NCBI GenBank assembly: GCA_016218925.1
Contig: JACRCR010000160.1
Span: 25,718-89,717 of the forward strand
Reading direction: 5' to 3'
DNA: 64,000 nucleotides
Origin: Deltaproteobacteria bacterium
GTDB taxonomy: Bacteria > Desulfobacterota > Binatia > UBA1149 > CAITLU01
Below are positions 6,081 to 48,806 of this stretch, one piece after another (the stretch's first letter is position 1; every line of letters begins with the position of its first letter). The position numbers and the translations under genes were made by a program. Under the pieces are notes generated by a model. It worked only from the letters and a program-made list of their open reading frames with translations, had not been told where the DNA came from and ran no database searches.

Positions 6081-7300
6081 AACTCCATTCTCGTCATCGA
6101 GCCATCCGCCGCGATCGTCTCGAATATCAGCAGCGGGGGACGCTTGCCGTCGCCTGCGCGCGGCGTGCCGGCCATGACCTCGGTGGCCAGGCCGATGAAT
6201 TCCATCGGATCCAGACAGGCTTCGGGCGGCAACACCCCTTTGGCGGTGATGCTCCCGCGCTGCATCAGCATCACGCCGATCGCGGCCGGGATTCCGGTGC
6301 CCTCGCCGAGCGCGCTTTCGTCGGAGCCCATGTGGACGCGCACCTCACGCGGGTCGCCGTTCTTGCGGCCCTTCACCACCACGGACATGCAACCGCGCTG
6401 CTTGCCGAAGGCAGTTTCTTTCAGGATCCGTTCGCGCTGCTGGAGCAGGAACGCGATCGAGAAATCGTACGGGACCACGTCGTGTCCGCCGACGTCGATC
6501 GGTTCCTTGCTGGTGAGTCCGAGGCGGCACAGCTCACCGGTCAGATTGTAGTACTCGAGCGGCAGTACCGATCCTCTGTTGGTCACCTGCCGCACCCGCA
6601 GGTGCTGCGGCATCGTCACCTGTTCGGGGTGAGGGTACGGATAGGTCGGCGTGGGTCCGAGGACCGGGAAGTCGAATGTCTGCCGCAGCGCGATGCCGTC
6701 CTCGCCGAAATATCTGACGGTTTTCAGCCGGCCCTCCAGAAACATCGGGATGTCGATGCTCATGCAGTGGAAGCGATGTCCGATCACTCCGGGACCCTCG
6801 GTCGGTTCGCCGCCGTGGCAGTGGAAGATGTCGATCGAGTCGGTCTCGTCCATCTGCGAGTCGGCTATGTACTTCGCGAGCAGATTGGTAGCACCGGGGG
6901 ACGCGCCCATGCCGATCAGTGCGGTGATCCCCGCGCGGCTGGCCGCGTCGTTCATCGCGAGGACGTCGAGCGTCACGTCGACGTCATCGCAAATGTCGAC
7001 GTAGTCGATCGCGGCGTCGATCACTGCGGCGAGGATCGTCTTTACCGTCTTGTAGAACGGGCCTACGCAGTTGAGTACGATGTCTGCACCGTCGATCGCC
7101 CTGCGAACGCTGGCCGCGTCGCCGGCGTCGGTCGCCACGAAGCGGACTCGGTCGGCTCCCAGGCCCTCGACGAGCTGGCGGGCGCGGGCCGCGTTCTGGT
7201 CACCGATCACCACCTGCGAAAATTCCGGTCGCTGCGCGAGTGTCCTCACCGCGACGCTGCCAACTGCCCCACAACCACCCAGTACGACAACCTTGCTCAT
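6077..7300 (-). CDS. Saccharopine dehydrogenase-like NAD(P)-dependent oxidoreductase
   Basis: 407 residues beginning with V-V-V-L-G-G-C-G-A-V-G, a Rossmann nucleotide loop, followed by the D-x-V-L-N-C-V-G-P-F-Y block and Y-V-D-I-C-D-D characteristic of the saccharopine dehydrogenase superfamily; G-M-G-A-S-P-G-A-T-N is also typical. Members oxidise or reduce amino/hydroxy acids and polyamine-type substrates. It is the first gene of a two-gene unit with the FGGY kinase (4-bp overlap), so its product may feed the kinase or the reverse. The TetR gene at 7429-8082 lies just upstream on the same strand. Confidence 0.82.
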   Translation of the reverse strand: MSKVVVLGGCGAVGSVAVRTLAQRPEFSQVVIGDQNAARARQLVEGLGADRVRFVATDAGDAASVRRAIDGADIVLNCVGPFYKTVKTILAAVIDAAIDYVDICDDVDVTLDVLAMNDAASRAGITALIGMGASPGATNLLAKYIADSQMDETDSIDIFHCHGGEPTEGPGVIGHRFHCMSIDIPMFLEGRLKTVRYFGEDGIALRQTFDFPVLGPTPTYPYPHPEQVTMPQHLRVRQVTNRGSVLPLEYYNLTGELCRLGLTSKEPIDVGGHDVVPYDFSIAFLLQQRERILKETAFGKQRGCMSVVVKGRKNGDPREVRVHMGSDESALGEGTGIPAAIGVMLMQRGSITAKGVLPPEACLDPMEFIGLATEVMAGTPRAGDGKRPPLLIFETIAADGSMTRMEL

Positions 7301-7428
7301 GACTTTCTCGACCTCCTTGTGTTCCCGGGCGCCGCGGCGCCCGCGGTGTCATCGTCTCGTGTGCGCGTCGCAGGCTCGCGGCCGCCCCGTTTCGTTGCCC
7401 ACTGGCTCGCGACGCGTCGCCGCCGTTC

Positions 7429-8082
7429 TCATCGCGTTTGTTTCAAGGCCAGACGGGCCAGCGCATCGAACGCGGCCAGGCGCCGCCGGTCGGTGCGCTT
7501 GTCTTGCAGTGCCACCGAGTCAATCGCGGCCGCCTGCATCGCCAGAATCAACACGTCGAACGCGTCGTCGAAGTGGGGCGGAGCGTTGGCGCCGTAGAGT
7601 TCTCGTGCCCGCCGCAGCAGGTTGGCCTGGTGCCGCAGCGCCATCGGTCGCAGCGCGGCTCCCAGCGCGCCGTCCGAGCGTGCCGCGAGATAGACTTCGT
7701 TGGTCATCAGGTATTCGGGAGTCGTCATCACCTTCCACAGCGCCTCAACTGAGGCGGCGGCGACGTCGTCCTTCTTTCCGGCCCGCTCGATCGAACGCCT
7801 GTAGCGCGACTCGAGATCTGCGAACACCTGCTCGATCGCCGCGACGATCAGGTCGGCCTTGGTGGGATAGTGGCGGAACAGGGCTCCCTCCGACACCTGT
7901 GCCTCGCGCGCGATCGCTGCCGTGGTGAGCCGCGCGTAGCCCGAATCGACCAGGCATCGGGCAGTGGCGGCGAGCAGCCTGCGCTGCGTCTCCACGCTGC
8001 GATCCTGCTGCGCGACGCGGCGCCGGCCGAGCGCGACCGGGGCTGTGCCGGGCGAAGAGGGACGGGGGACGGGCTTGCGCAC
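7429..8082 (-). CDS. TetR/AcrR-family transcriptional regulator
   Basis: 217 residues. Residues 28-75 form a TetR N-terminal helix-turn-helix: L-L-A-A-T-A-R-C-L-V-D-S-G-Y-A, then I-A-R-E-A-Q-V-S-E-G-A-L-F-R-H-Y. The remaining 140 residues would be the ligand-binding and dimer domain. It is divergent from the acyl-CoA catabolic operon starting at 8365, with a palindrome (8111-8132) in between, the usual layout for a repressor of fatty-acid or acyl-CoA genes. It is also cotranscribable with the saccharopine-dehydrogenase/FGGY pair downstream on its own strand, so it may control both. Confidence 0.88.
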   Translation of the reverse strand: MRKPVPRPSSPGTAPVALGRRRVAQQDRSVETQRRLLAATARCLVDSGYARLTTAAIAREAQVSEGALFRHYPTKADLIVAAIEQVFADLESRYRRSIERAGKKDDVAAASVEALWKVMTTPEYLMTNEVYLAARSDGALGAALRPMALRHQANLLRRARELYGANAPPHFDDAFDVLILAMQAAAIDSVALQDKRTDRRRLAAFDALARLALKQTR

Positions 8083-8110
8083 GCGGACTTCTTACCCGGA
8101 CGGCCGGGTG

Positions 8111-8132
8111 AATGCAAGTGAGCACTCGCATT
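8111..8132. promoter_or_regulatory. Probable TetR operator palindrome
   Basis: An imperfect 22-bp palindrome with outer arms AATGC (8111-8115) and GCATT (8128-8132) and inner arms AGTG/CACT; 9 of 11 base pairs match by eye. It lies 29 bp upstream of the TetR start and about 230 bp upstream of the acyl-CoA operon start. Size and AGTG...CACT core resemble operators of TetR-type acyl-CoA regulators. Binding is inferred. Confidence 0.55.
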
Positions 8133-8364
8133 TTATCCGCTTCGCCGCGGTCGGCGCGGCCAGACGGCGCGGTGAGCCGCGCAGCGGCCGGCGCGCAGCT
8201 GTCGCGCGCGTCCGTCTCGTCTTGACGGAGCGGTGGTTCGGACGGAAGATCCGCGCCGCAACTGCGAAGAATCACCAGCATCTACCACGATTCCGCGTCA
8301 GCGCCGGCGCGCAGTAGCGCGACCCGGGCGGCACACGGAAGCCCGAACCTGTCAGGGGGCCTCG

Positions 8365-9231
8365 ATGGAACTGAAAGAAGCAATTGGTCGCCGGCGCTCG
8401 ATGCGCTTTCTCGCGCCGTATCGTCCGGTGGAAAGAGAGAAGATCCAGAAGATGCTCGAAGCCGCCCGGCAGTGTTCGTTCTGGGGCAACGTCAGAGCGC
8501 TGCGGGCCACGGTGATCGAGAAAGCATCGGCGCCGCAGGAGATCCTCGACGCGATCCCGGAAGGATCGGCGCTGGGCGGATTCCAACTGCGACTGGCGCC
8601 GGTGATCATCGTCTGGTGGCTCGACTGGCACGCGATCAAGGTGCAAGGCGACCGGCTGCACGAACTGGTGGAAGCAGGTGCTGCGGGAATCGACAAGGCC
8701 GACAGTCATCGCTACCTCGACGAGAAACTCATCCCGTTCTTCGCCGCTGCCGGCGACAGCCTGAAGACCGGCGGAATGACCGAGATGGACTGCGGTCAAG
8801 GAATCGCCCATGCCACGCTGGTGGCCTTCGAGGAAGGACTCGGCACCTGCCTGCTCGGCTTGCCGGCCCACAAGAAGCTGAAGAAAGCGCTCGGGCTTCC
8901 CGAAGACTCGAAGTTCCTGTGCGTGCAGACGGTGGGCTATCCGGCCGAGCAGCCCGAGGCCGGCGGCCAGCGCCCGCGGCTCCCGTTCGAAGAGATGTTC
9001 ACGCTCAACGTCGCCGCCAACCCGTTCCCGCGTGAGCAGAAGGTCGTCGACGAACTCGTGCAAGCCAAACTGATCCAGGCGCAGGCTCCGCTGCCGTGGC
9101 GCTTCGAGGAACTCCAGTACCTCGCCAAGGCTCTCGACATCGCACCGATTTTCGGCGAGGAGTCCGACGGCATCGCGGTTGCGATGATGCAGGAGATGCA
9201 AGAGGCGATGGAGAAGGGCGGCAAGTCCTGA
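8365..9231 (+). CDS. Nitroreductase-family protein
   Basis: 288 residues from ATG 8365, chosen because AGGGGG lies just upstream; the frame is open further 5' but without a start signal. The N-terminus M-E-L-K-E-A-I-G-R-R-R-S-M-R-F fits the nitroreductase flavin-binding opening (I-x-x-R-R-S-x-R), and M-D-C-G-Q-G-I-A-H-A-T-L-V-A-F-E-E-G-L-G-T-C-L-L-G matches the second conserved block. FMN-dependent NAD(P)H oxidoreductase is the family role. It carries about 80 extra C-terminal residues compared with short nitroreductases. First gene of the acyl-CoA operon, so it may act as an enoyl/ring reductase there (inference). Confidence 0.75.
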   Translation: MELKEAIGRRRSMRFLAPYRPVEREKIQKMLEAARQCSFWGNVRALRATVIEKASAPQEILDAIPEGSALGGFQLRLAPVIIVWWLDWHAIKVQGDRLHELVEAGAAGIDKADSHRYLDEKLIPFFAAAGDSLKTGGMTEMDCGQGIAHATLVAFEEGLGTCLLGLPAHKKLKKALGLPEDSKFLCVQTVGYPAEQPEAGGQRPRLPFEEMFTLNVAANPFPREQKVVDELVQAKLIQAQAPLPWRFEELQYLAKALDIAPIFGEESDGIAVAMMQEMQEAMEKGGKS

Positions 9232-9275
9232 TCGAGGCCGGGCAGCGAACCCAGGATCAGATAGGAGAGGCGACA

Positions 9276-10409
9276 ATGGGCGATCCGTTCCCGCGCGAGG
9301 TTTTCGTGGTCGGCGTCGGCATGACGGCGTTCGGCCGGCATGAAGGCAAGACCATCCAGGATCTGGGACCCGAGGCTGTGCGAGCGGCGCTGGCCGATGC
9401 CGGTCTCGGCTACGAGGCGATCGAGACCGCCTACTGCGGCCACGTGCTGCAAGGCTCGACAGCGGGGCAAAGGGTGCTGTACGAGCTCGGGATGACCGGC
9501 ATCCCGATCTTCAACGTGGAGAACGCGTGCGCCAGCGGCACCTCGGCGCTGCGTGCTGCGGCGCTGGCCGTCGGTCATGGAATCGCCGACGTCGCGCTGG
9601 CCTGCGGCTTCGAAGTGATGGGGCGCGGTGCCATCCCCACCGGAGGGGACGCGCGCCTGGAGCGCGGCGCCCCGGCCGGAGTCGCTCCGCTTCCCGCGCT
9701 GTTCTCGGCGGTCTTCCGCGCTCACGCCGAGCGCTACGGCACCACCCTCGAACAACTGGCCGCGGTCACCGTCAAGAACCGCGCGTACGGAGCCAAGAAC
9801 CCGCGTGCCCAGTTCCACGAGGCTGTCACCCTCGACGAAGTGATGGCTTCGCGCGAGGTGGCGCCGCCGCTGCGGCTGCTCATGTGCTGCCCGACCACCT
9901 CCGGCGCCGCGGCGGTGGTGGTGGCCAGCGCCGATGTCGCGCGCGGGACCCGCAAGCCGATCCGGATCGTGGCGTCCGTGCTGCGCTCAGACCCGGCGAT
10001 CGACCGAGGGGACGCGCTGGCGGGAATCACCGAGATCAACTCCGCGGCGATGCGCGCCGCGTTCGAGCAGGCCGGCGTGCGACCCGACCAGCTCGATACC
10101 GCCGAAGTCCACGACTGCTTCTCGATTGCCGAGATCATCCACTACGAGAACCTCGGCCTGTGCGCGCGCGGCGAAGGCGGCCGCTTCGCCGAGCAGGGCA
10201 TCAAAGACGCCCGCGTGAAGGTGAGCACGAGTGGCGGCCTGCTCGCCAAGGGCCATCCGCTCGGCGCCACCGGCGTCGCTCAGACCGTCGAGGCCGTCGA
10301 GCAGCTTCGCGGCGAGTCGGGCGAGCGACAGGTCCAGGGCGCGCGTCTGGCGCTGGCGCACTGCCAGGGGTTCGGCGGCGCCGCCGGCGTGCACATCTTC
10401 GCGAAATGA
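9276..10409 (+). CDS. Thiolase, SCP2/nondecarboxylating lipid-transfer type
   Basis: 377 residues from ATG 9276, preceded by AGGAGAGG. The acyl-accepting Cys85 lies in N-A-C-A-S-G; the C-terminal half has E-V-H-D-C-F-S-I-A-E and G-G-L-L-A-K-G-H-P-L-G-A-T-G with the catalytic His. This set, with H-D-C rather than a second C-x-G near the end, is that of SCPx-type thiolases, which cleave 3-ketoacyl-CoA, often of branched or steroid substrates. No DUF35 partner is seen beside it. In the operon it would supply the last beta-oxidation step. Confidence 0.85.
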   Translation: MGDPFPREVFVVGVGMTAFGRHEGKTIQDLGPEAVRAALADAGLGYEAIETAYCGHVLQGSTAGQRVLYELGMTGIPIFNVENACASGTSALRAAALAVGHGIADVALACGFEVMGRGAIPTGGDARLERGAPAGVAPLPALFSAVFRAHAERYGTTLEQLAAVTVKNRAYGAKNPRAQFHEAVTLDEVMASREVAPPLRLLMCCPTTSGAAAVVVASADVARGTRKPIRIVASVLRSDPAIDRGDALAGITEINSAAMRAAFEQAGVRPDQLDTAEVHDCFSIAEIIHYENLGLCARGEGGRFAEQGIKDARVKVSTSGGLLAKGHPLGATGVAQTVEAVEQLRGESGERQVQGARLALAHCQGFGGAAGVHIFAK

Positions 10410-10508
10410 GAGAAGTCGGCGCCGGTTGCTGACCCGACCCCCGGCGGCGGTGTTCACGGCGCCGCGCCCGCTGCGGGCGCTGCCGGAGCCGATTGTGGAG
10501 AAGCTACC

Positions 10509-12107
10509 GTGACGAACGATTTCGAGACCTTCGCGCGAGTGCTCGAGCAGCAGGCGGTTGCCAAGGGCGACGAGACTTTCCTGCTGTTCGAAGGCGAATG
10601 CATCGGCTACGCCGAACTCGACCGCCGCGCCAATCGCATCGCAGCGGCACTGGCGAGGCGCGGCGTCGGGCAAGGCTCGGGCGTGGCGATCATGATGAAC
10701 AACTCGCCGGCCTGGCTGGAGGTTTTCTTCGGCACGCAGAAGCTCGGCGCCTACGCGGTGCCGATCAACGTTGCACTGCGCGGCGAGGGTCTCGGCTATA
10801 TCATCGACCATTCTGAAGCCGCCACGCTGGTGGTCGACGCCGACCTGCTCGATGCAGTGCTGCCGATCCGCGCCGAGCGCAGCGGTCTGAGCCGCCTGAT
10901 CGTCAACACTTCCTATCTGGTGGATCCCGCCACCGCGCCGCCGGTGCCTGCCGACGCTGTCACGCTGGCCGATCTGGCGGCCGAAGGCTCACCCGAGCCT
11001 CGCGATCGCGACCTGACGCCGGGAGGCAAAGCGGTGCTGCTCTACACGTCTGGCACTACCGGGCTTCCCAAGGCGGTGGTGGTACAGCGCGGGGGCTTCA
11101 GTTGGGCGGGCGTCACCGCTCTGGCGCAGGCCGCCTACGGTCCCGGCGAAGTTCTCTACACCTGCCTGCCGCTCTTCCACGCCAACGCGCTGTTCCTGAG
11201 CGTCATGCAGGCGCTGCGCTGCGCACTGCCGATCGCGATCGGACGCCGTTTCAGTGCCAGCCGTTTCTGGGATGATCTTCGCAGATACGATGCGAGCACG
11301 TTCAACGCGCTCGGAGCGATGATCCCGATCCTGCTCAAACAACCTCCCAGGCCCAGCGACCGGCAGCACCGCGTACACGTCGTGTTCAGCGCCGCCGCGC
11401 CCAAGTGGGCGTGGGAGCAGTTCGAAGAACGGTTCGGAACCAAGATATGGGAGGCCTACGGCGCAGTCGACGGCGGTGGGTTCATGCTCTTCAACATGGG
11501 CAACGGACCGAAGGGCTCGATGGGCGTGCCGCCGCCCGGCGTGGACGCGCGAGTCTTTCGCGAGGATGGCACCGAGGCCGAGCCCGGCGAAGTCGGCGAG
11601 CTGGTCTTCAAGGTGGACGACCCGGTGGCGCGGCGCGTGGACTACTTCAAGAACGAGAAGGCTTCGGCCGCCAAGATCCGCGACGGGTGGTTCCACACGG
11701 GCGATCTCGCCTCGCGTGACGATGAGGGGTGGTTCTACTTCGCCGACCGAGCCACCGATTCGCTGCGCCGGCGCGGCGAGAACATCTCCTCGTTCGAGAT
11801 CGAGAAGATCGTCAATCAACACCCGAGCGTTCTGGAATCGGGGGCGTACGGTGTGCCCTCCGAGCTCGGCGAAGACGACGTCATGCTCGCGGTAGTGAAG
11901 AAACCCGGCATGGAAGTCACGCCCCAGGAGCTCGTCGCGTTCTGCGAGCAGCGCATGGCCAAGTTCATGGTTCCCCGTTACATCGATTTTCGCGACTCGC
12001 TGCCCAAGACCGAGACTCACCGCGTGCAGAAGGCCAATCTCAAGAAGGAAGGCGTGACGGCGACCACCTGGGACCGGGAGAAGACCGCGCCGCCGCGTCC
12101 CGCGTAG
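10509..12107 (+). CDS. AMP-dependent acyl-CoA synthetase/ligase
   Basis: 532 residues starting at GTG 10509. The P-loop-like motif L-L-Y-T-S-G-T-T-G-L-P-K-A is at about 177-190, followed by W-E-A-Y-G-A-V-D-G and the hinge W-F-H-T-G-D-L-A-S-R-D-D-E-G-W-F-Y-F-A-D-R; the C-terminal domain has the conserved K-T-E-T-H-R-V-Q-K, where the expected catalytic Lys region lies. The ANL superfamily activates carboxylic acids to acyl-AMP and then acyl-CoA. Upstream gap 99 bp; same strand as its operon neighbours. It probably activates the substrate of this pathway. Confidence 0.9.
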   Translation: MTNDFETFARVLEQQAVAKGDETFLLFEGECIGYAELDRRANRIAAALARRGVGQGSGVAIMMNNSPAWLEVFFGTQKLGAYAVPINVALRGEGLGYIIDHSEAATLVVDADLLDAVLPIRAERSGLSRLIVNTSYLVDPATAPPVPADAVTLADLAAEGSPEPRDRDLTPGGKAVLLYTSGTTGLPKAVVVQRGGFSWAGVTALAQAAYGPGEVLYTCLPLFHANALFLSVMQALRCALPIAIGRRFSASRFWDDLRRYDASTFNALGAMIPILLKQPPRPSDRQHRVHVVFSAAAPKWAWEQFEERFGTKIWEAYGAVDGGGFMLFNMGNGPKGSMGVPPPGVDARVFREDGTEAEPGEVGELVFKVDDPVARRVDYFKNEKASAAKIRDGWFHTGDLASRDDEGWFYFADRATDSLRRRGENISSFEIEKIVNQHPSVLESGAYGVPSELGEDDVMLAVVKKPGMEVTPQELVAFCEQRMAKFMVPRYIDFRDSLPKTETHRVQKANLKKEGVTATTWDREKTAPPRPA

Positions 12108-12147
12108 CCGATCGGACGCCGGTGCGCCGGCGAGCAAGGAGACCGCG

Positions 12148-13395
12148 ATGCAATATCTGGATCTGGACCTCGACCTGACCGATCGCGAACGCGAGCTTCG
12201 CGCGGCCGCGCACCAGTTTGCGGCCGACGTTCTGCGTCCGGCCGCAAAGGCACTCGATGAGATGCCCGCCGACCGGGTCGTCGAGAAGAACTCGCCGCTT
12301 TACGAGGTGCTGCGCAAAGCCTATCGGCTCGGATACCACACCATCGGTATTCCCGAAGAGCTCGGCGGGCAGGGGCTCTCGCCGCGCGAGCGCCACATAG
12401 TCTCGGAGGAACTCGCCTGGGGCTGCTCGGGGCTGGCGATCGCGATCGGGGTGGCGTCGTTCCCGTCGCTGGCCGCCGCGATGTCGGGCAACCCCGATCT
12501 GATCAAGACCTACGTCACGCCGTTCCTCAGCGACACCGAAGCCAGGATGATCGGCTGCTGGGGCGGCACCGAGCCCAACCACGGCTCCGATTTCGTCGCT
12601 CTGGGAGCGGCCGAGAACAGCAATCCGGCGATCGTTCCGGACGTGCGCGCCAGGCTGGTCGGCGACGAGTGGGTCATCAGCGGCCAGAAGTCGCAGTGGG
12701 TGAGCCTCGGCACCATCGCCACCCACACGCTCGCCTTCCTGTCGGTAGACCCGAGCAAAGGCATGTCGGGCAACGGCGTGTGCATCATTCCGCTCGAGCA
12801 ACCCGGCGTTTCCAAGGGGCCCGCGCTCAACAAGCTCGGCCAGCGCCCGCTCAACCAGGGCGAGCTGTTCTTCGACGACGCGCGCGCTCCGCAAGACCAC
12901 ATGCTGGTGGGCCCCGAGATGTACGACATGTACGTCGACGGCATTTTGGCGATGGCCAATGCGCTGATGAGCGCGACCTTCACCGGCGTGGCGCGCGCGG
13001 CCTTCGAGGAGGCGCTGGCCTACAGCAAGACGCGCATTCAGGGCGGCAAACCGTTGTGCGAGCATCAGCTCATCCAGCGGATGCTCTTCGAGATGTTCAT
13101 GAAGGTGGAGGCGTGTCGCCGGCTCTCGCGCGCTGCCTACTGTTACAACGCGGTGACGATGCCGCCGGCCGTCGAGTATTCGATCGCGGCGAAGGTGTTC
13201 TGCACGCAGGCGTCTTTTGACGTGGCGTCGATGGCTCTGCAGATCCACGGTGGCTACGGCCTCAGCAAGGACTACGTCGTCGAGAAGCTGTTCCGCGACG
13301 CGCGCGCGTCGCTGATCGAAGACGGTACCAACGAAGTGCTCGGACTCGCCGCCGCGCGCAAACTGGTCGAGCGCTACGGGAACGCGGTGAGCTGA
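12148..13395 (+). CDS. Acyl-CoA dehydrogenase (first of two in the operon)
   Basis: 415 residues. Recognisable ACAD blocks: I-P-E-E-L-G-G-Q-G-L-S in the N-terminal helical domain, C-W-G-G-T-E-P-N-H-G-S-D-F and K-S-Q-W-V-S in the beta domain, and I-H-G-G-Y-G-L-S-K-D-Y...E-D-G-T-N-E-V-L near the C-terminus. FAD enzyme that introduces an alpha-beta double bond into acyl-CoA. It begins 40 bp after the synthetase, and a REP-like tandem repeat follows its stop codon directly. Substrate chain type unknown. Confidence 0.9.
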   Translation: MQYLDLDLDLTDRERELRAAAHQFAADVLRPAAKALDEMPADRVVEKNSPLYEVLRKAYRLGYHTIGIPEELGGQGLSPRERHIVSEELAWGCSGLAIAIGVASFPSLAAAMSGNPDLIKTYVTPFLSDTEARMIGCWGGTEPNHGSDFVALGAAENSNPAIVPDVRARLVGDEWVISGQKSQWVSLGTIATHTLAFLSVDPSKGMSGNGVCIIPLEQPGVSKGPALNKLGQRPLNQGELFFDDARAPQDHMLVGPEMYDMYVDGILAMANALMSATFTGVARAAFEEALAYSKTRIQGGKPLCEHQLIQRMLFEMFMKVEACRRLSRAAYCYNAVTMPPAVEYSIAAKVFCTQASFDVASMALQIHGGYGLSKDYVVEKLFRDARASLIEDGTNEVLGLAAARKLVERYGNAVS

Positions 13396-13403
13396 AAGCT
13401 GGA

Positions 13404-13514
13404 GGGGTCAAGTCGCGCCTTTCGATTTGCCGTCGCGACCGGTCGGAGCTGAGAGGGTAGGGGGGTCAAGTCGCGGCTTTCGATATGTCGTCGCGACCGG
13501 TCGGAGTTGAGAGG
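13404..13514. repeat. Two-unit tandem, REP-like repeat between operon genes
   Basis: Two 53-bp copies at 13404-13456 and 13462-13514 (period 58 bp) with only four mismatches by eye. Each begins GGGGTCAAGTCGCG and contains the overlapping palindromes GTCGCGAC and CGACCGGTCG. The element lies between the acyl-CoA dehydrogenase stop and the ribosome site of the enoyl-CoA hydratase. It looks like a repetitive extragenic palindromic element of the kind mobilised by RAYT transposases; no transposase is present in the window. Confidence 0.8.
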
Positions 13515-39297: not shown

Positions 39298-40214
39298 GCG
39301 TCGAGACGGCGACAGCACGGGAGGTGGATAGCGTGACAGCCAGCGCAGCTCTAGGCGAAGACGCCGTGCGCGCGTTCGAGAACGACGCCAAGATCGCGTT
39401 GCTCGCCACTCTCGACGCCGATGGCAAACCCCACCTCAGCCTCATCACGTCGCTGCAGGCGCGAACTCCCGGCGAACTGATGTTCGGCCAGTTCAGCGAG
39501 GGACTGAGCAAGCAGCATCTTCGCGCGGATCCGCGCGCCGGCTTCCTGGTGATGAGCAAGGACCGCCGAATATGGCGCGGGAGCGCACGGTGGACCCACG
39601 CCGCCAAGCACGGTGACGAATACGAACTCTACAACCAGAAACCGATGTTCCGCTACAACGCGTACTTCGGCATCCACACCGTGCATTATCTCGACCTCGT
39701 CGCACTCGGTGGCGAGGAAAAGTTCGATGCGGGGTCGTTCGTGCGTGGACTGCTGACCACCTCGCTGGTGCGCCGCCTGGTCGGCGGCAGCGCTGGCGAG
39801 CGCATCTTGACGCCGTGGGCCGAGCGGCACATCGGCCGCGCGCGCACGCTGAAGTTCCTCGCTTACGTGGGCGGCGACGGGTACCCGGCGATCATCCCGC
39901 TGGTGCCGTGTCTGCCGGCTGACAGCGCCCGCCTGGTCGTCGCCGGCTCGGTGCACCCCGGCGAGTTCGATGCGCTCGGCCGCGGGACCACTTGCGCGCT
40001 CTACGCACTGAACCTCGAAATGGAGAGCGTGCTCGTGCGCGGGCGCTGGTCGGGGGTCGGCCGCTACGCCGGTCTGCGAGCCGCGACGCTCGACATCGAC
40101 TGGGTCTACAACTCGATGCCTCCGAGCCACGGCGTGATCTATCCTCCTACCGTGCTCTCTCCCGTCACCGAGTCGGACTACACAGCGGCTGATCCTCAAT
40201 CCTCCGGCATATGA
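39294..40214 (+). CDS. Pyridoxamine 5'-phosphate oxidase-like flavin protein
   Basis: 306 residues starting at GTG 39294 inside the activase stop. Residues 20-100 (K-I-A-L-L-A-T-L-D-A-D-G-K-P-H-L-S and R-A-G-F-L-V-M-S-K-D) match the split-barrel FMN-binding fold of PPOX-like proteins; the C-terminal half (about 170-300) looks like a second, diverged copy (G-Y-P-A-I-I-P-L-V-P). Such proteins bind FMN, haem or F420, so the activity is open. Location between two radical SAM genes in one coupled operon suggests an accessory redox role or a modification of the pathway product. Confidence 0.72.
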   Translation: MSVETATAREVDSVTASAALGEDAVRAFENDAKIALLATLDADGKPHLSLITSLQARTPGELMFGQFSEGLSKQHLRADPRAGFLVMSKDRRIWRGSARWTHAAKHGDEYELYNQKPMFRYNAYFGIHTVHYLDLVALGGEEKFDAGSFVRGLLTTSLVRRLVGGSAGERILTPWAERHIGRARTLKFLAYVGGDGYPAIIPLVPCLPADSARLVVAGSVHPGEFDALGRGTTCALYALNLEMESVLVRGRWSGVGRYAGLRAATLDIDWVYNSMPPSHGVIYPPTVLSPVTESDYTAADPQSSGI

Positions 40215-41536
40215 CCGAGGTTCCGTCCGACCACACGTTGCCGCCGCGGGCGTTCCACTTGCTCGCCAAGCCGACCGGTGCGATCTGCAATCTCGACTGC
40301 GACTACTGCTTCTTCCTCTCCAAGGAGTCGCTCTATCCCGGCAGCCGCTTCCGGATGGCGGACGAGCTGCTCGACTCCTACATCCGCCAGCTGATCGGGG
40401 CTCAGCAGTGCCAGGAGGTGTCGGTGGCGTGGCAGGGCGGAGAACCGATGCTGATGGGTTTGGACTTCTTCCGCCGGTCCATCCAGTACCAGAACAAGTA
40501 TCGCCGGCCCGGGATGACGATCTCGAACACCATCCAGACCAACGGCACGCTGATCGACGACGAGTGGGCCGCGTTCTTCGCCGAGAACGACTTCCTGGTC
40601 GGCATCAGCATCGACGGTCCACGCGGGATGCACGATGCCTACCGGCGCGACAAGGCCGGCGAGCCGACCTTCGATCGCGTCGTTCGCGGTCTCGACCTTC
40701 TTCGCGATCACGGCGTGGAGTTCAACGCGCTGGTGACGCTGCACCGCGCCAACGCCGACCATCCGCTCGAGGTCTACCGCTTCCTGCGAGATGACCTGGG
40801 CATACGGCACATCCAACTCATCCCGATCGTGGAACGCGTGGCCGAGAGCGAAACCGGCGAAGCGGCGGCGGGAGAGCACGGCGAGCGAGGCGCTGACACG
40901 TACGGGAGCGATCGGCCGCCGCGCACCCAACGCGGCGATGCGGTCACCGAGCGCTCGATCACGGCAGAGCAGTACGGTCGCTTCCTGATCGCGATCTTCG
41001 AGGAGTGGGTCCGCCGCGACGTAGCGGAAGTCTACGTCGATCTGTTCGATGTCGCGCTCGCCAATTGGATGGGAGAACCGTCCGGTTCCTGCGTCTTCTC
41101 GCCGACCTGCGGGCTCGCTCTGGCGATGGAACACAACGGTGACGTGTATTCGTGCGACCACTTCGTGGAGCCCGAGTACTTGCTTGGCAACATCGCCGAC
41201 ACACCGATGAGCGAGCTGGTCGCATCGACCAGGCAGCGCAGGTTCGGCCACGACAAACTCGACACGCTGCCAGACTACTGCCGTCGCTGCTCGGTGCGCT
41301 TTGCCTGTCATGGCGGCTGCCCCAAAGACCGGTTCGTCCTCACTCCGGACGGCGAGCCGGGACTGAACTACCTGTGCGCCGGATACATGGCGTTCTTCGA
41401 GCACGTCGACAGGCCGATGCGCATCATGACCGAGCTGGCGCGCCGAAGACGCGCGCCGGCCGAGATCATGCAGCTATATGCCGCCGAGGACGCCGAACGC
41501 GATGCCGCGCGCATTGCTCCCTCGACGCGCTGTTAG
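40211..41536 (+). CDS. Anaerobic sulfatase-maturating enzyme (radical SAM, SPASM)
   Basis: 441 residues, ATG overlapping the previous stop. Radical SAM motif Cys26, Cys30, Cys33 in C-N-L-D-C-D-Y-C-F-F, preceded by A-K-P-T-G-A-I, as in anSME. The C-terminal SPASM domain has C-G-L-A-L-A-M-E-H-N-G-D-V-Y-S-C-D and C-R-R-C-S-V-R-F-A-C-H-G-G-C-P-K-D-R. anSME oxidises a Cys or Ser of sulfatases to formylglycine without oxygen. Its end overlaps the end of the convergent sulfatase gene, which carries the C-S-P-T-R target motif. Confidence 0.93.
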   Translation: MTEVPSDHTLPPRAFHLLAKPTGAICNLDCDYCFFLSKESLYPGSRFRMADELLDSYIRQLIGAQQCQEVSVAWQGGEPMLMGLDFFRRSIQYQNKYRRPGMTISNTIQTNGTLIDDEWAAFFAENDFLVGISIDGPRGMHDAYRRDKAGEPTFDRVVRGLDLLRDHGVEFNALVTLHRANADHPLEVYRFLRDDLGIRHIQLIPIVERVAESETGEAAAGEHGERGADTYGSDRPPRTQRGDAVTERSITAEQYGRFLIAIFEEWVRRDVAEVYVDLFDVALANWMGEPSGSCVFSPTCGLALAMEHNGDVYSCDHFVEPEYLLGNIADTPMSELVASTRQRRFGHDKLDTLPDYCRRCSVRFACHGGCPKDRFVLTPDGEPGLNYLCAGYMAFFEHVDRPMRIMTELARRRRAPAEIMQLYAAEDAERDAARIAPSTRC

Positions 41537-43926
41537 ACGCGGATCCCGAGCGCTTGCAGGAAGCGCATGCTTTCGAGCGGCGTGAAGGGCGCCGGGTCGA
41601 TGTCGAAGCGCGCGCGCAGCAGCTTTCCCTGGAACGGATTGGCGCCCTTGTACAGCGTGGAGACCTGGTTGCCGAGGTCGGCCCCGAGCGAGAAGCCGTC
41701 GTAGGAAGTCACCAGCAGCACCCGATTGAAGGTGTGTTCGGCCACCTTGCGGTCGCCGATGTACAGCGAGCCCGTGCCCTCGAATGGCCGCGCCGTCATC
41801 TTCTGCACGTACCGCACGGTGAGCGGTCCGTCCGGCAGCGTTTCGCTCGACTCGATGCGTTCGACGAACGGGACCGCGCTCTGCTCGTAGCGCAGCTTGC
41901 CGCCGTGGATGAAGAACGTGTAGCCCGCGTGCTTGGAGCCGCAGGCCAGCAGCACGCCGTCGCCGCGGCCGGGCGCGCGCTCGATGTCGACCGTGATCGT
42001 GTGGTCGCAGCCGGCGATGTACGGCGAGGTGTGCGCGGACAGCCGCTCCACCGGAGGGTGGAACTCCCACACCTTGCGCGTGCCGCGGCGCTGGCGGTCC
42101 TGCGCCATCTTGATGATCAGGTTGCGATCGTCGAGCGGGAAGGCCCCGTACTTCTCGGCGTCCTTCGTCCACCTGGCGACCATCTCGCTGACTTTGTCGG
42201 GCATCTTCGCGGCGAGGTCGTGGAGTTCGTTGGGATCCTTGGACAGGTCGTAGAGCTCCCAGACATCGTCCTCAAACGGCTTGCCGCGCTCGTGGCGGGT
42301 TACCAGGCGCCAGTTGCCGTCGAGGTAGGCGCGCTGGCCGCCCAGTTCGAAGTACTGCGAGGTGCGCGTCGGCGCCGCCGCGTCCGTGAAGGTCGCGACG
42401 ATGCTCGCGCCTTCCAGCGGCTTCAGCCTGCGGCCACGGTAGACGTCGGGCCTCTTCACTCCCACCGCCTCCAGGATCGTCGGGTACAGGTCGATCACGT
42501 GGACGAAGTTGCGGCGGACCTGTCCGCGTGCCGCGATCTGTTTCGGCCACGAGATGATCAGCGGGTCGGCCACTCCGCCGAGGTGCGTGTACTGCTTGTA
42601 CATGCGAAAAGGCGTGTTCGACGCGCACGACCAGCCGATCGGGTAGTGGGGGAAGGTCTCGTCCTGTCCCATCGTGTCGTAGAACTCGGCGGCTTTCTCG
42701 ACCGGGATCGGATAACCGAGCGCTGAGGCCAGTACATTCGGCGTTCCGGTCGGCGTGCCCTCGGCCGAAGCGCCGTTGTCGGAGAGCAGTACGACGAGCG
42801 TGTTCTCGCGCTCGCGGATCTCTTCGAGCGAAGTGAGCAACCGGCCGATGTTGGCGTCGAGACTGGAGACCAGGCCGGCGTAGACTTCCATGTAGCGGCT
42901 GTAGACGCGCCTTTCGATGTCAGTGAGCGTGTCCCAGGGCTCGGCGCCGGGCGACAGCGGCGGCAGCTCGCTGGTTTCGGGCACGACACCGAGTTTGCGC
43001 TGGCGCTCGAGCCTCGCCTTGCGCACTACGTCCCAGCCCTGGTCGTACATCCCGTGGTAGGCATCGCGATCGCGCGCGCGCACCTGCAGCGGCGAGTGCG
43101 CGGCGGGGTAGGCCACCTGGAGGAAGAACGGCTTGTTGGGGGTGAGCGTCTTCTGCGTGCGAACGTAAGCGATCGCGCGGTCGGTGAGGTCGTCGAGTGC
43201 GTAGTAATCGTCCTTCTCGGCATGCTCGACGGGGCTGACTCCGTCGATCAATTCGGAAGGCTTGAAGTAGTCGGTGGAGTGCCCCTGGAACCAGAATGCG
43301 CGTTCGAAGCCGCGGTTGGTCGGCCAGTTGTGGTACGGACCGACCGCGCTGCACGAGGCCGCCACGTTCATGTGCCACTTGCCGACGTGCAGCGTGGACC
43401 AGCCGGCGTCGCGCAGGACTTCCGCCGTGGTGGCCGCCTCCAAGGTGAGGTCGCCGCGGTATCCGGGGTAGCCGCTGTCGAGGTCGGCGAGCCAGCCCAT
43501 GCCGGCCGAGTGATGGTTGAGGCCGGTGTTGAGCGCCGCCCGCGTGGGCGAGCACATCGCGCAGGTGCGGAAGTTCGTGTACTGCAGGCCGTCCTTGGCC
43601 AGTGCGTCCATGTTCGGAGTGCGGATCTCGCTGCCGTAGACGCCCAGGTCCGAGAAGCCGACGTCGTCGATGACGATCACCACGATGTTGGGGGCACCGG
43701 CCGGGGCCTCCAACTCGCCCGCGTAGGCTGGACGCGAGTCCGCGAACGATTCGGCGACCTCGGCGGCCTGGCCCGCGCCAACCGCCTCGGGCGTGCGCAG
43801 TTTGCGGGTCTTCTCCTGCACGGTGAGCAGGCCCTTTGCGCCGAGGGCTGTCACCACCGCGCCTCCGGTGGCGCCGATCAGGAAAGAGCGCCGGTCGATC
43901 CGTTTGCTGTTGCCGTCGTCCGCCAT
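41533..43926 (-). CDS. Tat-exported sulfatase (formylglycine-dependent)
   Basis: 797 residues from ATG 43926; an upstream in-frame ATG (43968) would add 14 residues. The N-terminus D-R-R-S-F-L-I-G-A-T-G is a twin-arginine signal, so the enzyme is folded before export. The metal/active site begins with V-I-D-D-V-G-F-S-D (Asp87, Asp88); the formylglycine precursor is Cys125 in C-S-P-T-R. The region L-L-S-D-N-G-A-S-A-E-G supplies further metal ligands. Length matches large arylsulfatases. It is probably matured by the convergent radical SAM enzyme. Substrate unknown. Confidence 0.92.
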   Translation of the reverse strand: MADDGNSKRIDRRSFLIGATGGAVVTALGAKGLLTVQEKTRKLRTPEAVGAGQAAEVAESFADSRPAYAGELEAPAGAPNIVVIVIDDVGFSDLGVYGSEIRTPNMDALAKDGLQYTNFRTCAMCSPTRAALNTGLNHHSAGMGWLADLDSGYPGYRGDLTLEAATTAEVLRDAGWSTLHVGKWHMNVAASCSAVGPYHNWPTNRGFERAFWFQGHSTDYFKPSELIDGVSPVEHAEKDDYYALDDLTDRAIAYVRTQKTLTPNKPFFLQVAYPAAHSPLQVRARDRDAYHGMYDQGWDVVRKARLERQRKLGVVPETSELPPLSPGAEPWDTLTDIERRVYSRYMEVYAGLVSSLDANIGRLLTSLEEIRERENTLVVLLSDNGASAEGTPTGTPNVLASALGYPIPVEKAAEFYDTMGQDETFPHYPIGWSCASNTPFRMYKQYTHLGGVADPLIISWPKQIAARGQVRRNFVHVIDLYPTILEAVGVKRPDVYRGRRLKPLEGASIVATFTDAAAPTRTSQYFELGGQRAYLDGNWRLVTRHERGKPFEDDVWELYDLSKDPNELHDLAAKMPDKVSEMVARWTKDAEKYGAFPLDDRNLIIKMAQDRQRRGTRKVWEFHPPVERLSAHTSPYIAGCDHTITVDIERAPGRGDGVLLACGSKHAGYTFFIHGGKLRYEQSAVPFVERIESSETLPDGPLTVRYVQKMTARPFEGTGSLYIGDRKVAEHTFNRVLLVTSYDGFSLGADLGNQVSTLYKGANPFQGKLLRARFDIDPAPFTPLESMRFLQALGIRV

Positions 43927-44330
43927 GTCGATTCCTCGGGCGGACGGCCTGACAGGCGGCGTCCGCATTGCTGGTTGAGAAAGTGAAAAATTTGCCCGGG
44001 TGGCGGTCAGAGCCTGGGCTGCGTCGAGTTGCCCGAGTCCGACGCGCCCTTCCGAGGCGGCCCACCATGCCTGCGTTCCGATCGCGTGACAACGCTTCGT
44101 CGCCCGGTAGGGCGAGACCTCGATCATCCGACCCACTCGAGGTCCGTCTCGGGAGCTTGCTGCGACATCGCTCCGTGCGGTGGTTCTGCGAAGACGCCTG
44201 CCGCGGCGAGCCGGTGGCGCAGGGGCATCGCCCTCAGCCGCGACAAGCGCTCGCAAGACAACCTCTCTCCCTGACATCGCCACCGCACCGGGATAGGATC
44301 CGAGCGAAAACGTTGGAGCGGGGTGTCGCC
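43927..44330. other. Divergent intergenic region, 404 bp, no gene seen
   Basis: Lies between the start of the sulfatase (minus) and the start of the cysteine-rich protein (plus). I see an AT-rich patch GAAAAATTTG near 43985 that could be part of the sulfatase promoter, and no convincing gene, hairpin or repeat. Open frames passing through it are upstream extensions of the two flanking genes without good start signals. Confidence 0.4.
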
Positions 44331-47300
44331 ATGAGGGGATTTCGGTGTCACGCGCACGGGGAACGTGCGAACACGTCTCGGGCCTTCGGCCGCGTGCGCC
44401 TGTTGTGGGGCGGACTGCTGTTGCTCGGTGTTCTCGCCGCGCCGGCGACCGCCGCCGCGGTTTGCGGCGACGCGATACTAGACCCTAGCGAAGAGTGTGA
44501 TCCGGGCGGCGGCACCTACGTCGACGGCGACCCGGCCAACGGTTCGTGTAGTACCGGCGGCGACTGCTTCTACGAATTCAGTTGCTGCAAGTTCAACTGT
44601 CAGTTCGTCGGCGAGGGTGCGACCTGCTTCGACGACAATCCGTGCACGACCGCCGATCAATGCGACCAGGTCGGCAACTGCGGCGGCAACAACGTACCTG
44701 ACGGCGGGCTCTGCGATGACGGATTGTTCTGCACGGTCGGCGACCAGTGCACCGCCGGGGTCTGCTCGGGGCCGGCCTACGATTGCAGTGACTCCAACGT
44801 GTGTACCGACGACTCGTGCAACGAAGCCGCCGATTCGTGCTCGAACGTGCCGAACGCCGTGGCGTGCGACGATGGCCTGTTTTGCTCGACCGGCGATCAG
44901 TGTTCGGGCGGCGCCTGCTCGGGGACGGCGCTCAGTTGCGACGATTCGAACGCCTGTACGGACGACTCGTGCGACGAGGTGGGCGACGCCTGCATCAACG
45001 CGAACAACGCCAATGCCTGCGACGACGGCCTGTTCTGTACGGTGAGCGATGCCTGCACCGGCGGCCTCTGCACCGGCCCGGCCCGCGACTGCGGCGACTC
45101 CAACGCGTGCACCGACGACTCGTGCAACGAAGCGGGGGACGTCTGCATCAACGCCGACAACGCCGACCCGTGCGACGACGGCCTGTTCTGCACGGTGAGC
45201 GACGCGTGCGCGGGCGGCGTCTGCACCGGCGCGGCGCGAGACTGCGGCGATGCCAACGTCTGTACCGACGACGTGTGCGATGAAGGCACAGCCGCGTGCA
45301 GCAACCCGAACAATACCGCCGCTTGCGATGATGGTCTGTTCTGCACGGCCACCGATAGCTGCTCGGCCGGCGCATGCGTGGGAAGCGGCAACGGCTGCGA
45401 CGATGCCAATGCCTGCACCGACGATACCTGCATCGAGGTCGGGGCTCTGTGCCTGTACGCGAACAACGCGGCGGCGTGCGACGATTCCGACGCTTGCACG
45501 ACGCTCGATACCTGCTCGGGCGGCGTGTGCGTGGGCGGTCCGGCGCTGGTGTGCGACGACGCCAACATCTGCACCGACGACTCGTGCAGCCCCTCGCTCG
45601 GGTGCGTCTTCGACGGCAACGGGATTTCGTGCGACGATGGGCTCTTCTGCACGCTGAACGACCGTTGCCGCGCCACCGTGTGCTCGGGCGCCGCGCGCGA
45701 CTGCGGCGACGGGAACATCTGTACCAGCGATTTCTGCGACGAGGCCGGCTCGGCCTGCGGCAGCGCGTTCAATACCGTCGAGTGCGACGACGGCGACGCC
45801 TGCACGGTCGACGACCGCTGCAGCGGCGGCTCGTGCGTGCCTGGCGCGGCCATGACGTGCGACGATTTCAACGTCTGCACCGACGAGGCTTGCGATCCGA
45901 GCGTTGGATGCCAGTTCTTCTCCAACTCCCTGGCGTGCGACGACGCCGATCCTTGCACGCCGGCCGATACCTGCGTGGCGGGCGCCTGCCAGGGCAGCGG
46001 CTCGCTTTGCGGCAACGGGATCGGCGACGGCGGCTGCGGTGAGACCTGCGACGACGGCAACATCGCCGACGGCGACGGCTGCTCCGGCGCGTGTCAGCTC
46101 GAGCTTCGCGCGGAGCTGTCGCTGGCCAAGGTGGACGATTTCGACCCGGTTCTTCCGGGCGGCCTCCTCACATACACGCTGGCGTACTCGAACAGCGGCG
46201 AGGCCCCGCTGACGGGCGTTGTGGTGTCCGATCTGGTCGATCCCAGTACTACGTTCTTTGCGGCGCAGCCGGCGCCCGACGATGGCACGCAGGATCGCTG
46301 GACGATCGGCGCGCTCACACCCGGACAGAGCGGTAGCATCCAAGTCACGGTGGTCGCCGGCGCCGATCTCGGCGACGGCGACATCCTGCTCAACGCAGCC
46401 GAGATCGCTGCCGACGACGGCACGCTCGCACAAGCTACCGAGTCGACAGCGGTGTCGGCGAGCGTGAGCACGGCGCTGCTTCGGGTCGACGTCGCTCCGT
46501 ATCTTGCGTCGTCGCGCGCGCCGGGATCGCTGATCTACGCGGTGTTCTATCGAAACGAGGGCTCGGACACGGCGGTGGCGGCAACGCTCGCGTTGGAGTT
46601 CCCCGCCGGCATGACTTTCGGTGGCGCCACGTTGGCGCCGGCGTCGCAATCGCAGGCGACTGCGTCGTGGTCGCTCGGGGACCTCGAGCCGGGCGCGCGC
46701 GGGGGCTTCGTAGTTGCGGCGCGCGTGACCTCGGGTCTCGCCGCTGGCACCTCGCTGGCGGCGTGCGCGCAGCTCAGCGGTCTTGCGCCGGAGGGGGCCC
46801 TGGACGGGCCGGGTCTGCATGGCGGTTCCTGTGCGACCGCGAACGTCATCGGGCAGTGCGATCTGTGGTTCGCCAAGACGCACGAGCCGGTCGCGACCCT
46901 GCCCGGCGTAACCGGCGCGGTGTTGTCGCCGGCGGCGACCGCTCCGGTTGGTGCCGGCGGCGATGCGCTGGCGCGAGCTTCCGTCCGGGTGCTGGCGTCG
47001 CGTCTGTCGGGTAAGCAGCGGGCGCTGGTGATGCGTGCCGTCGATCCGCCGCACACGGCGACCGTCGCAGGCAACCGCAACGCGCGCGCCGGCGGCGGTG
47101 TGAGCTACTCGATCCGTTACAAGAACATCACGGTCACCAATTCTCTCGACGTCACGGTTGCGGATGCCGTCACGCTGACGCTGATCGCTCCGGCGCCGGC
47201 GTCGAGGGTGGGAAACTCGCTTCATTGGGACAACCTGGTGTCGCCGAGCGGCGCGGTGGCGCTTCGCGGCGTGGTCGATCCTGCAGCCGCGCCAGGAACG

Positions 47301-48806
47301 CTGCTGGAGGTGGCTGCGCAGCTCACCGACGATGCGGCCGCGATCGCCAGCGGCTCGTTCTCGACGCTGGTGCTCGACGATACCACGCCGGCTGCCGGCG
47401 ACGGCGCGCCGCTGGTCAGCGTCGCGGGAGTGCGCAACGCCAGGGCCGCGGCGGCGGTTTCGTTCAGTGTGCGCTATAGCCACGCCGGCGATTCCAACGC
47501 GCTGGTACTCGATCTGCCGGCGGGTCTCTCCGTCTCGTCGACATCGCCGCCGGCCGACGCGACCGGCGATGCAACGCTTGCCTGGAACGACCTGCACGCG
47601 CCGTCGGGGAGCATCGCCATACGCGGCGAACTCGCTCCCGATCTCGCGCCGGGCACCGCTCTGACGCTTTCCGCCACGCTGACCAACGACGGCGGCGAGT
47701 CCGCCACTGGCGGTTTCACGACCACGGTGCTGGAGCCGCGGCCCGACACGGTCGATGCGCCGCCGACGCTGGTAGGGACCGACATCACTTACGAGCTCCG
47801 CTGGCTGGCGCCGTGCCAGGACGGCGCGACGCTCGAAGTGCGCGACAGGCTTCCAGCGGATCTCGAACTGGTGACGGCTTCTGCCCAGCGCGGGTTCGTC
47901 AGTCGCGAAGCGGCCGGCGTCGCGATGGCGTTTCCGAGCACGCCGGCGGGTGCGCCGCAGGTCGCCCGCCTCTTCTCGCGGGTAGCTGCCGATCCGGCGC
48001 CCGGCACCCTCGTGGTCAACGAAGGTGAGGCCACTTTCGCCGCAGGCGTCAGCCGAGACGCGGACCTGTTCGAAGTGCCCGACCTCGGTGGCGTCGATGC
48101 GACGCCCAGGATCGACATCCTCGGTCGTACGACGGTTCGTGATGGCCGTGCGATCACACTCAGCGTTCGCGCCGCTGGACTCGCGCCCGGCGCGCGTGTG
48201 GTGGTCGCAGTTCCGGCCGAACTGGTTCCGACGTCGATCCAGCCGGAGCCGAGCGAGGTGGCCGGGAACGTCTTTACCTGGACGAATCTGCAAGAGACGG
48301 CGGTCTCGCTCCGCGTGCGAGGCGATATCGTGCTCGGCGACACGCCGGCGCTCGCGGCCTACGTTACGACTACCGCTGCCGTGCGAAACCCCGACGGCAA
48401 GCAAGCCACCACCGAGTTGCACACGCTGGCCACGATTCTTCGCAAGCCGCCCAAACCGCCGGTGGTACGCCCGGCGAGGTTCTCGCTGAGCGGCCAGCGG
48501 TGGGTCACCGACGGTGGGCGCGTCACTCTCGTTGCGCGCTACCACAACGTGGCCGGCAGCGCGGCGATCGAGATGGCGCTGCCCGAGCAGTTCGTCGCCG
48601 ACGCCGTCTACCCGGAAACCGGTACCGTCAACGGCAACATCATCCGCTGGCCGGCTACCAGCGGCGCCTCCGGCAAGGTCTCCGCGCTCGTGCACGTCGA
48701 TTTCGCCGGGGACTCTTCGGAGATCGACGTGGTGACGTCCACCGCGACGCTGACGCTCGAGAGCGGCGAGGTTCTGAGCCGCTCCCGCGGCTTCCTGGTG
48801 CGTTGA
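44331..48806 (+). CDS. Giant cysteine-rich repeat surface protein
   Basis: 1491 residues from ATG 44331. Signal peptide (hydrophobic about 24-43, ending A-A-A). Residues about 45-590 are Cys/Asp-rich: a C-G-D-A-I-L-D-P-S-E-E-C-D start, then repeats of C-D-D-G-L-F-C-T...D-x-C...G-x-C...C-D-D-x-N-x-C-T-D-D-x-C, closed by C-G-N-G-I-G-D-G-G-C-G-E-T-C-D-D-G-N, the usual myxococcal-type Cys-rich block. The rest (about 590-1491) consists of beta-sandwich repeats of DUF11/Ig-like type without Cys. Presumably a disulfide-hardened, secreted or surface-bound stalk or adhesin. No sorting signal such as MYXO-CTERM or PEP-CTERM is seen at the C-terminus. Confidence 0.85.
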   Translation: MRGFRCHAHGERANTSRAFGRVRLLWGGLLLLGVLAAPATAAAVCGDAILDPSEECDPGGGTYVDGDPANGSCSTGGDCFYEFSCCKFNCQFVGEGATCFDDNPCTTADQCDQVGNCGGNNVPDGGLCDDGLFCTVGDQCTAGVCSGPAYDCSDSNVCTDDSCNEAADSCSNVPNAVACDDGLFCSTGDQCSGGACSGTALSCDDSNACTDDSCDEVGDACINANNANACDDGLFCTVSDACTGGLCTGPARDCGDSNACTDDSCNEAGDVCINADNADPCDDGLFCTVSDACAGGVCTGAARDCGDANVCTDDVCDEGTAACSNPNNTAACDDGLFCTATDSCSAGACVGSGNGCDDANACTDDTCIEVGALCLYANNAAACDDSDACTTLDTCSGGVCVGGPALVCDDANICTDDSCSPSLGCVFDGNGISCDDGLFCTLNDRCRATVCSGAARDCGDGNICTSDFCDEAGSACGSAFNTVECDDGDACTVDDRCSGGSCVPGAAMTCDDFNVCTDEACDPSVGCQFFSNSLACDDADPCTPADTCVAGACQGSGSLCGNGIGDGGCGETCDDGNIADGDGCSGACQLELRAELSLAKVDDFDPVLPGGLLTYTLAYSNSGEAPLTGVVVSDLVDPSTTFFAAQPAPDDGTQDRWTIGALTPGQSGSIQVTVVAGADLGDGDILLNAAEIAADDGTLAQATESTAVSASVSTALLRVDVAPYLASSRAPGSLIYAVFYRNEGSDTAVAATLALEFPAGMTFGGATLAPASQSQATASWSLGDLEPGARGGFVVAARVTSGLAAGTSLAACAQLSGLAPEGALDGPGLHGGSCATANVIGQCDLWFAKTHEPVATLPGVTGAVLSPAATAPVGAGGDALARASVRVLASRLSGKQRALVMRAVDPPHTATVAGNRNARAGGGVSYSIRYKNITVTNSLDVTVADAVTLTLIAPAPASRVGNSLHWDNLVSPSGAVALRGVVDPAAAPGTLLEVAAQLTDDAAAIASGSFSTLVLDDTTPAAGDGAPLVSVAGVRNARAAAAVSFSVRYSHAGDSNALVLDLPAGLSVSSTSPPADATGDATLAWNDLHAPSGSIAIRGELAPDLAPGTALTLSATLTNDGGESATGGFTTTVLEPRPDTVDAPPTLVGTDITYELRWLAPCQDGATLEVRDRLPADLELVTASAQRGFVSREAAGVAMAFPSTPAGAPQVARLFSRVAADPAPGTLVVNEGEATFAAGVSRDADLFEVPDLGGVDATPRIDILGRTTVRDGRAITLSVRAAGLAPGARVVVAVPAELVPTSIQPEPSEVAGNVFTWTNLQETAVSLRVRGDIVLGDTPALAAYVTTTAAVRNPDGKQATTELHTLATILRKPPKPPVVRPARFSLSGQRWVTDGGRVTLVARYHNVAGSAAIEMALPEQFVADAVYPETGTVNGNIIRWPATSGASGKVSALVHVDFAGDSSEIDVVTSTATLTLESGEVLSRSRGFLVR
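44712..46088 (+). repeat. Nine tandem 153-bp (51-residue) cysteine-rich units
   Basis: The codon for the first Cys of the C-D-D block recurs at 44712, 44865, 45018, 45171, 45324, 45477, 45630, 45783 and 45936, an exact 153-bp period over nine units although the units differ in sequence. No insertion or deletion interrupts the phase. This indicates a fixed 51-residue disulfide module, expanded by duplication within the gene. Confidence 0.9.

What the first reader, a model, noticed from the sequence alone, without database searches (positions are those of the whole stretch)
44712..46088. Nine exactly phased 153-bp cysteine modules in a 1491-residue protein
The C-D-D anchor recurs every 153 bp nine times without a single indel, although the units have diverged, which implies selection on the 51-residue module length (disulfide spacing). 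The array is joined to about 900 residues of Cys-free DUF11-like repeats, so the protein looks like a rigid disulfide rod on a beta-sandwich stalk.
Basis: partly seen in the sequence, partly recalled or inferred. Interest (0 to 1): 0.55.

Follow-up and report, generated by a model that had tools for sequence, protein, structure and literature searches.

The report
Disulfide-chained repeat arm, secreted bacterial protein
A secreted protein of an uncultured bacterium carries a long arm of small cysteine-rich repeats, most like a slime-mould matrix repeat by sequence and an amoeba adhesin arm by predicted shape; the exact 153-base spacing is an inherited trait of this gene, not a general rule of the repeat.

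Summary
The 153-bp phase is real: nine C-D-D anchors, 51 residues apart. But the building block is a half-module of 24-30 residues with four cysteines. Modules 6 and 8 hide a +1/-1 shift, module 9 has a foreign second half, and the tail has four conserved cysteines. An ortholog in another genus of the family keeps nine 51-residue units without a gap. Elsewhere the period is 50-60, 70-72, 77, 91 or 107 residues, typical of each array, and a paralog in the same genome mixes 51 and 52. So 51 is not a structural constant. The array is a Pfam Dicty_CTDC (PF00526) repeat array joined to a DUF11 (CLIPPER) Ig-like tail. AlphaFold2 folds three modules at pLDDT 97. The only significant solved-structure match is the cysteine-rich arm of the Entamoeba Gal/GalNAc lectin. 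Paired loss of cysteines 5 and 8, and odd cysteine counts in both end caps, fit that arm's published bonding: first-last within a half, middle ones to the neighbours. Best reading: an extracellular, covalently chained spacer arm of a fibrillar or adhesin-like protein. Known kind of parts; the bacterial link to the lectin arm is the new point.

The parts
44331..48806 (+). whole gene, 1491 aa secreted protein (ATG start)
   Evidence: full-length ortholog G004:C31
44331..44459 (+). probable Sec signal peptide (RVRLLWGGLLLLGVLAAPATAAA), by inspection only
   Evidence: no signal-peptide program available
44460..44624 (+). N-terminal cap, residues 44-98, seven Cys (odd)
44625..44711 (+). extra four-Cys half-module A' (Cys 99, 105, 111, 117)
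44712..45935 (+). eight full 51-residue modules (A half C5C5C4C, B half C5C4C5/6C); B halves match PF00526 Dicty_CTDC
45936..46007 (+). ninth anchor: A half only
46008..46100 (+). C-terminal cap with five Cys (odd), resembling the myxococcal disulfide repeat / DUF4215; not a second half of the module
   Evidence: resemblance by eye, those models did not score on this protein
46116..46418 (+). DUF11 (CLIPPER) Ig-like domain with the isopeptide triad Lys600-Asp634-Asn688, shared with the ortholog
   Evidence: spacing +34/+88 against +33/+91 in PDB 9IFR as given in PMC12617251
46419..48803 (+). rest of the tail: divergent Ig-like repeats, four conserved Cys, no recognised sorting tag

Best explanation
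This is a secreted, multidomain extracellular protein of a Candidatus Binatota bacterium. Its N-terminal part is an arm of 18 successive four-cysteine half-modules. Each half is a small beta hairpin closed by a bond between its first and last Cys; its two middle Cys bond to the halves before and after, so the arm is one covalent chain capped at both ends. The arm is joined to an Ig-like DUF11 (CLIPPER) stalk whose first domain is likely locked by an isopeptide bond. The arm most likely acts as a protease-resistant spacer or scaffold in a fibrillar adhesin or matrix protein. Shown here: secretion-type layout, module anatomy, family memberships, first-last Cys pairing by co-loss in relatives, and the fold match of the model. 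Inferred: inter-half bonds, surface location, adhesin or matrix role.
For: Module anatomy. PF00526 over its cut-off in this protein and matched by 51 of 73 family triplets. DUF11 at E 2e-20. AlphaFold2 triple at pLDDT 97 with one hairpin per half. Foldseek: only the Entamoeba Gal/GalNAc lectin heavy chain is significant, E 1.1e-5, prob 0.89-0.95; TNFR and EGF-like proteins lie at E above 2. That arm is published as 20-35-residue pseudo-domains with four Cys, first-last bonded within, second and third to the neighbours (PMC12948311). Cys5 and Cys8 are lost together in 24 of 948 units (expected 1.1), in 6 loci; no other pair is lost together more than once. By gap patterns: C1+C4 of one half 35 times, C2+C3 of one half never. 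VKOR and DsbA-type oxidases present. TraA of Myxococcus is a tested precedent for such stalks: up to three Cys repeats can be deleted (PMC6372800).
Against: No sequence match to the lectin in PDB even with profiles, so the fold link rests on Foldseek of a predicted model, with uninformative global TM (about 0.1) because long arms bend. No coordinates were returned, so bonds were not measured. Parity and co-loss counts are not phylogenetically independent, and single Cys losses occur. No surface anchor or sorting signal was found, no operon partner is conserved, and ligand or adhesion is untested.
Confidence: 0.6

Rival explanations
1. Independent mini-domains: each half closes on itself with bonds C1-C4 and C2-C3 and the array is beads on a string, not a covalent chain.
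For: C1-C4 pairing within a half is supported; single losses of Cys exist; pTM of the full array is only 0.37.
Confidence: 0.25
2. One reading: selection directly on a 51-residue module because the rod needs a fixed rise.
For: Ortholog has nine 51-residue units and no gap in 459 aligned residues against six gap events in 891 tail residues; among close relatives 24+27 and 25+26 splits dominate, giving 51 more often (69%) than shuffled loops do (48%).
Against: Own-genome paralog 51/52; array-specific periods of 50-60 and up to 107; with the wider set the loop 4/loop 7 correlation vanishes (-0.02), so the two 51 splits look like two inherited subtypes; 0 gaps against 3.1 expected is only about p 0.045.
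Confidence: 0.1
3. Signalling or recognition factor rather than a spacer, like the Dictyostelium CTDC proteins PsiA, PsiF, PsiN and PdiA, with the modules binding a ligand or metal through their acidic residues.
For: CTDC proteins include secreted signals (PMC4931340); modules are rich in Asp.
Against: No PA14 or other binding domain in this protein; family members are joined to propellers and Ig-like domains, which fits a scaffold as well.
Confidence: 0.15

Closest known systems
Dicty_CTDC repeat, Pfam PF00526 (Dictyostelium ecmA/ecmB, psiA, pdiA matrix and signal proteins)
   Same: B halves score over the curated cut-off (28 bits, cut-off 27; 32.9 bits on units 5-7); tandem arrays in secreted proteins
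   Different: bacterial, two alternating half types in a 51-residue period, DUF11 tail and no PA14 domain
Cysteine-rich arm of Entamoeba histolytica Gal/GalNAc lectin heavy chain (PDB 9GJA-9GJG)
   Same: only significant Foldseek match of the array model; four-Cys pseudo-domains of 20-35 residues; first-last bonding agrees with the co-loss seen here
   Different: no detectable sequence similarity; lectin has no DUF11 tail; inter-half bonds not shown here
TraA of Myxococcus xanthus (TIGR04201 Cys-rich repeats)
   Same: secreted bacterial protein with a tandem Cys-rich stalk; authors noted the likeness to PF00526 (PMC3325183)
   Different: TIGR04201 gave no match; no PA14, no MYXO-CTERM
DUF11 / CLIPPER fibrillar adhesin stalks (PF01345, PDB 9IFR)
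   Same: domain match and Lys-Asp-Asn triad in the first tail domain
   Different: later tail domains lack the triad; no anchor domain found

Membership tests
Dicty_CTDC (PF00526) | score over Pfam's gathering cut-off | tested here: met
   28.0 bits against 27 for the whole protein; 32.9 for units 5-7
Dicty_CTDC (PF00526) | tandem copies in a secreted protein | tested here: met
   four stretches pass; signal peptide by inspection only
DUF11 / CLIPPER | PF01345 match over cut-off | tested here: met
   73.6 bits, cut-off 24.6
DUF11 / CLIPPER | intramolecular isopeptide triad Lys-Asp-Asn | tested here: met
   K600, D634, N688 align with the own-genome DUF11 repeats and are shared with the ortholog; the bond itself is not testable here
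DUF11 / CLIPPER | tandem DUF11 over the whole tail | tested here: not met
   only two to three stretches score; the rest are divergent Ig-like repeats
Entamoeba lectin arm fold | structural similarity | tested here: met
   Foldseek E 1.1e-5 on the 459-residue model, 1.5e-3 on the three-module model
Entamoeba lectin arm fold | sequence homology | tested here: not met
   profile searches of PDB sequences gave no hit
Entamoeba lectin arm fold | C3 of one half bonded to C2 of the next | tested here: inconclusive
   cap parity and absence of C2+C3 co-loss agree; no direct bond evidence
TraA Cys repeat TIGR04201 | NCBIfam model match | tested here: not met
   no match up to E 1 on the protein or 0.1 on 73 relatives
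Fibrillar adhesin | surface anchor and adhesive domain | tested here: not met
   no sorting tag or known adhesive domain in Pfam or NCBIfam

The most novel reading that the evidence does not exclude
The bacterial CTDC-type arrays, the Dictyostelium matrix repeats and the cysteine-rich arm of the Entamoeba Gal/GalNAc lectin share one fold: a covalent daisy chain of four-Cys hairpins. The lectin arm, published as a novel fold, would then have a large bacterial and archaeal family behind it.
Probability: 0.45. Interest if true: 0.6.

Novelty: new member of a known kind. Interest (0 to 1): 0.4.

Why it matters
If the daisy-chain reading holds, a very common but unstudied class of bacterial secreted proteins (58 of 145 related genomes; also Myxococcota, Planctomycetota, Acidobacteriota and some archaeal genome bins) gets a structural model and a testable bond pattern, and an amoeba adhesin arm described as a novel fold gets relatives. 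It also corrects the idea that exact 153-bp phasing implies a functional length rule.

Tried and rejected
Viral contigs with the array: no match. Genome scan with the tail: no named relative. PDB sequence searches with the protein and two profiles: nothing; DUF11 domain alone: only chance hits. PHROGs: nothing. The first alignment of the tail used the wrong strand of L059 and was redone. Conserved neighbourhood with the ortholog: none. An operon link with the divergent sulfatase and its radical SAM neighbour was considered and dropped because they are absent beside the ortholog. Regex counts of single Cys losses and of C3(n)+C2(n+1) co-loss suffer from frame slips and were not used. Apparent length compensation was dropped as evidence for selection after the wider set removed the loop correlation.

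Full report
Observation. The gene is window 44331-48806 on the + strand, 1491 aa. Nine CDD anchors lie exactly 153 bp apart from 44712 to 46088, and Cys autocorrelation peaks at 51 and 102 residues. The phase is real.

Anatomy. The repeat unit proper is a half-module with four Cys. The protein has 18 halves in a row: one at residues 99-127, sixteen in units 1-8 and one at 536-559. Among 131 units of close relatives the loops 5-5 of half A and 5-4 of half B do not vary (the search pattern fixed some of these); the linkers between halves and the last loop of half B do. With a profile search and no such pattern, 620 units still show loops 1, 2 and 6 almost fixed. The N-terminal cap has seven Cys and the C-terminal cap five.

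Evolution. G004, another genus of the same family, has a full-length ortholog: 67% identity and no gap in the array, 53% and six gap events in the tail. Units 1 and 4-9 match their own counterparts best (unit 8 only narrowly), units 2 and 3 do not, so the nine-unit layout is older than the split of the two genera. dN/dS of the array is about 0.28 (dN 0.24, dS 0.84): purifying selection. Elsewhere period length is a property of each array: 51, 53, 54, 55, 60, 70-72, 77, 91 or 107 residues; of 59 arrays with at least four units, modal length is 51 in 18 and 55 in 12. A paralog in the same genome has 51 and 52.

Family. Pfam gives DUF11 and Dicty_CTDC over their cut-offs, and 51 of 73 relatives match Dicty_CTDC. 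The own genome has at least 20 reading frames with such modules, some joined to RCC1, NHL or Rax2-type propellers or a disintegrin-like domain. Fifty-eight of 145 related genomes have them. Named hits include Myxococcota, Phycisphaerae and other Planctomycetota, Thermoanaerobaculia and two archaeal genome bins. The window's genome is of the same family as Candidatus Binatota isolate Dive96_bin2.95, shown by identical sequence of L049 (G003, same family) and L115.

Structure and bonding. AlphaFold2 gives pLDDT 97 for three modules, with a hairpin in each half, and about 90 for units 1-8 of the whole array. Foldseek against PDB finds one significant protein, the heavy chain of the Entamoeba Gal/GalNAc lectin (E 1.1e-5). 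Its paper describes pseudo-domains of 20-35 residues with four Cys, first-last bonded within, second and third bonded to the previous and next pseudo-domain (PMC12948311). Independent sequence signals agree. Cys5 and Cys8, the first and last of half B, are lost together in 24 of 948 units against 1.1 expected, in six loci of five genomes. Middle Cys of one half are never lost together. A chain leaves one unpaired Cys at each end, so caps must be odd; here they are 7 and 5, and over the arrays odd caps prevail at both ends. These counts are not independent of ancestry.

Mechanism. Sec-type signal peptide by inspection; VKOR and DsbA-type oxidases are encoded in the genome, DsbB is not found. 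The first DUF11 domain carries Lys600, Asp634 and Asn688 at the spacing of the solved CLIPPER domain, so it likely holds an isopeptide bond. Arm and stalk together look like a covalently reinforced spacer. The Myxococcus TraA precedent, in which up to three Cys repeats can be removed without loss of function, supports a spacer role for such arrays in general (PMC6372800). What this protein binds, and how it is held on the cell, is unknown.

Verdict.

Noticed in passing
L089 (G000:C76) 5500-13100: A 3331-aa frame in the same genome has about 16 DUF11 domains at a nearly constant 357-bp period, with the isopeptide triad conserved in the seven copies aligned.
   Followed up: partly
L082 (G000:C222) residues 1375-1427: Disintegrin (PF00200) match over the curated cut-off (47.8 bits) in a Binatota protein that also has CTDC-type modules.
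   Followed up: no
window 40211-44283: Radical SAM/SPASM protein next to a sulfatase on the other strand, like a sulfatase and its maturase.
   Followed up: no
window 44478-48695, - strand: A 1405-codon open frame lies antisense to the gene, as is common in GC-rich coding sequence; taken as an artefact.
   Followed up: no
G000:C149:3866-4975: VKOR and DsbA-like domains in one 435-aa frame, while DsbB is not found in the genome.
   Followed up: partly
L101, L107, L161: Runs of modules in which B halves have lost exactly the first and last Cys.
   Followed up: yes
L105 residues 560-1010: Array with a 70-71-residue period whose unit is three four-Cys halves in a row.
   Followed up: partly
window 13404-13514: 58-bp tandem duplication (1.9 copies, 92% match).
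   Followed up: no
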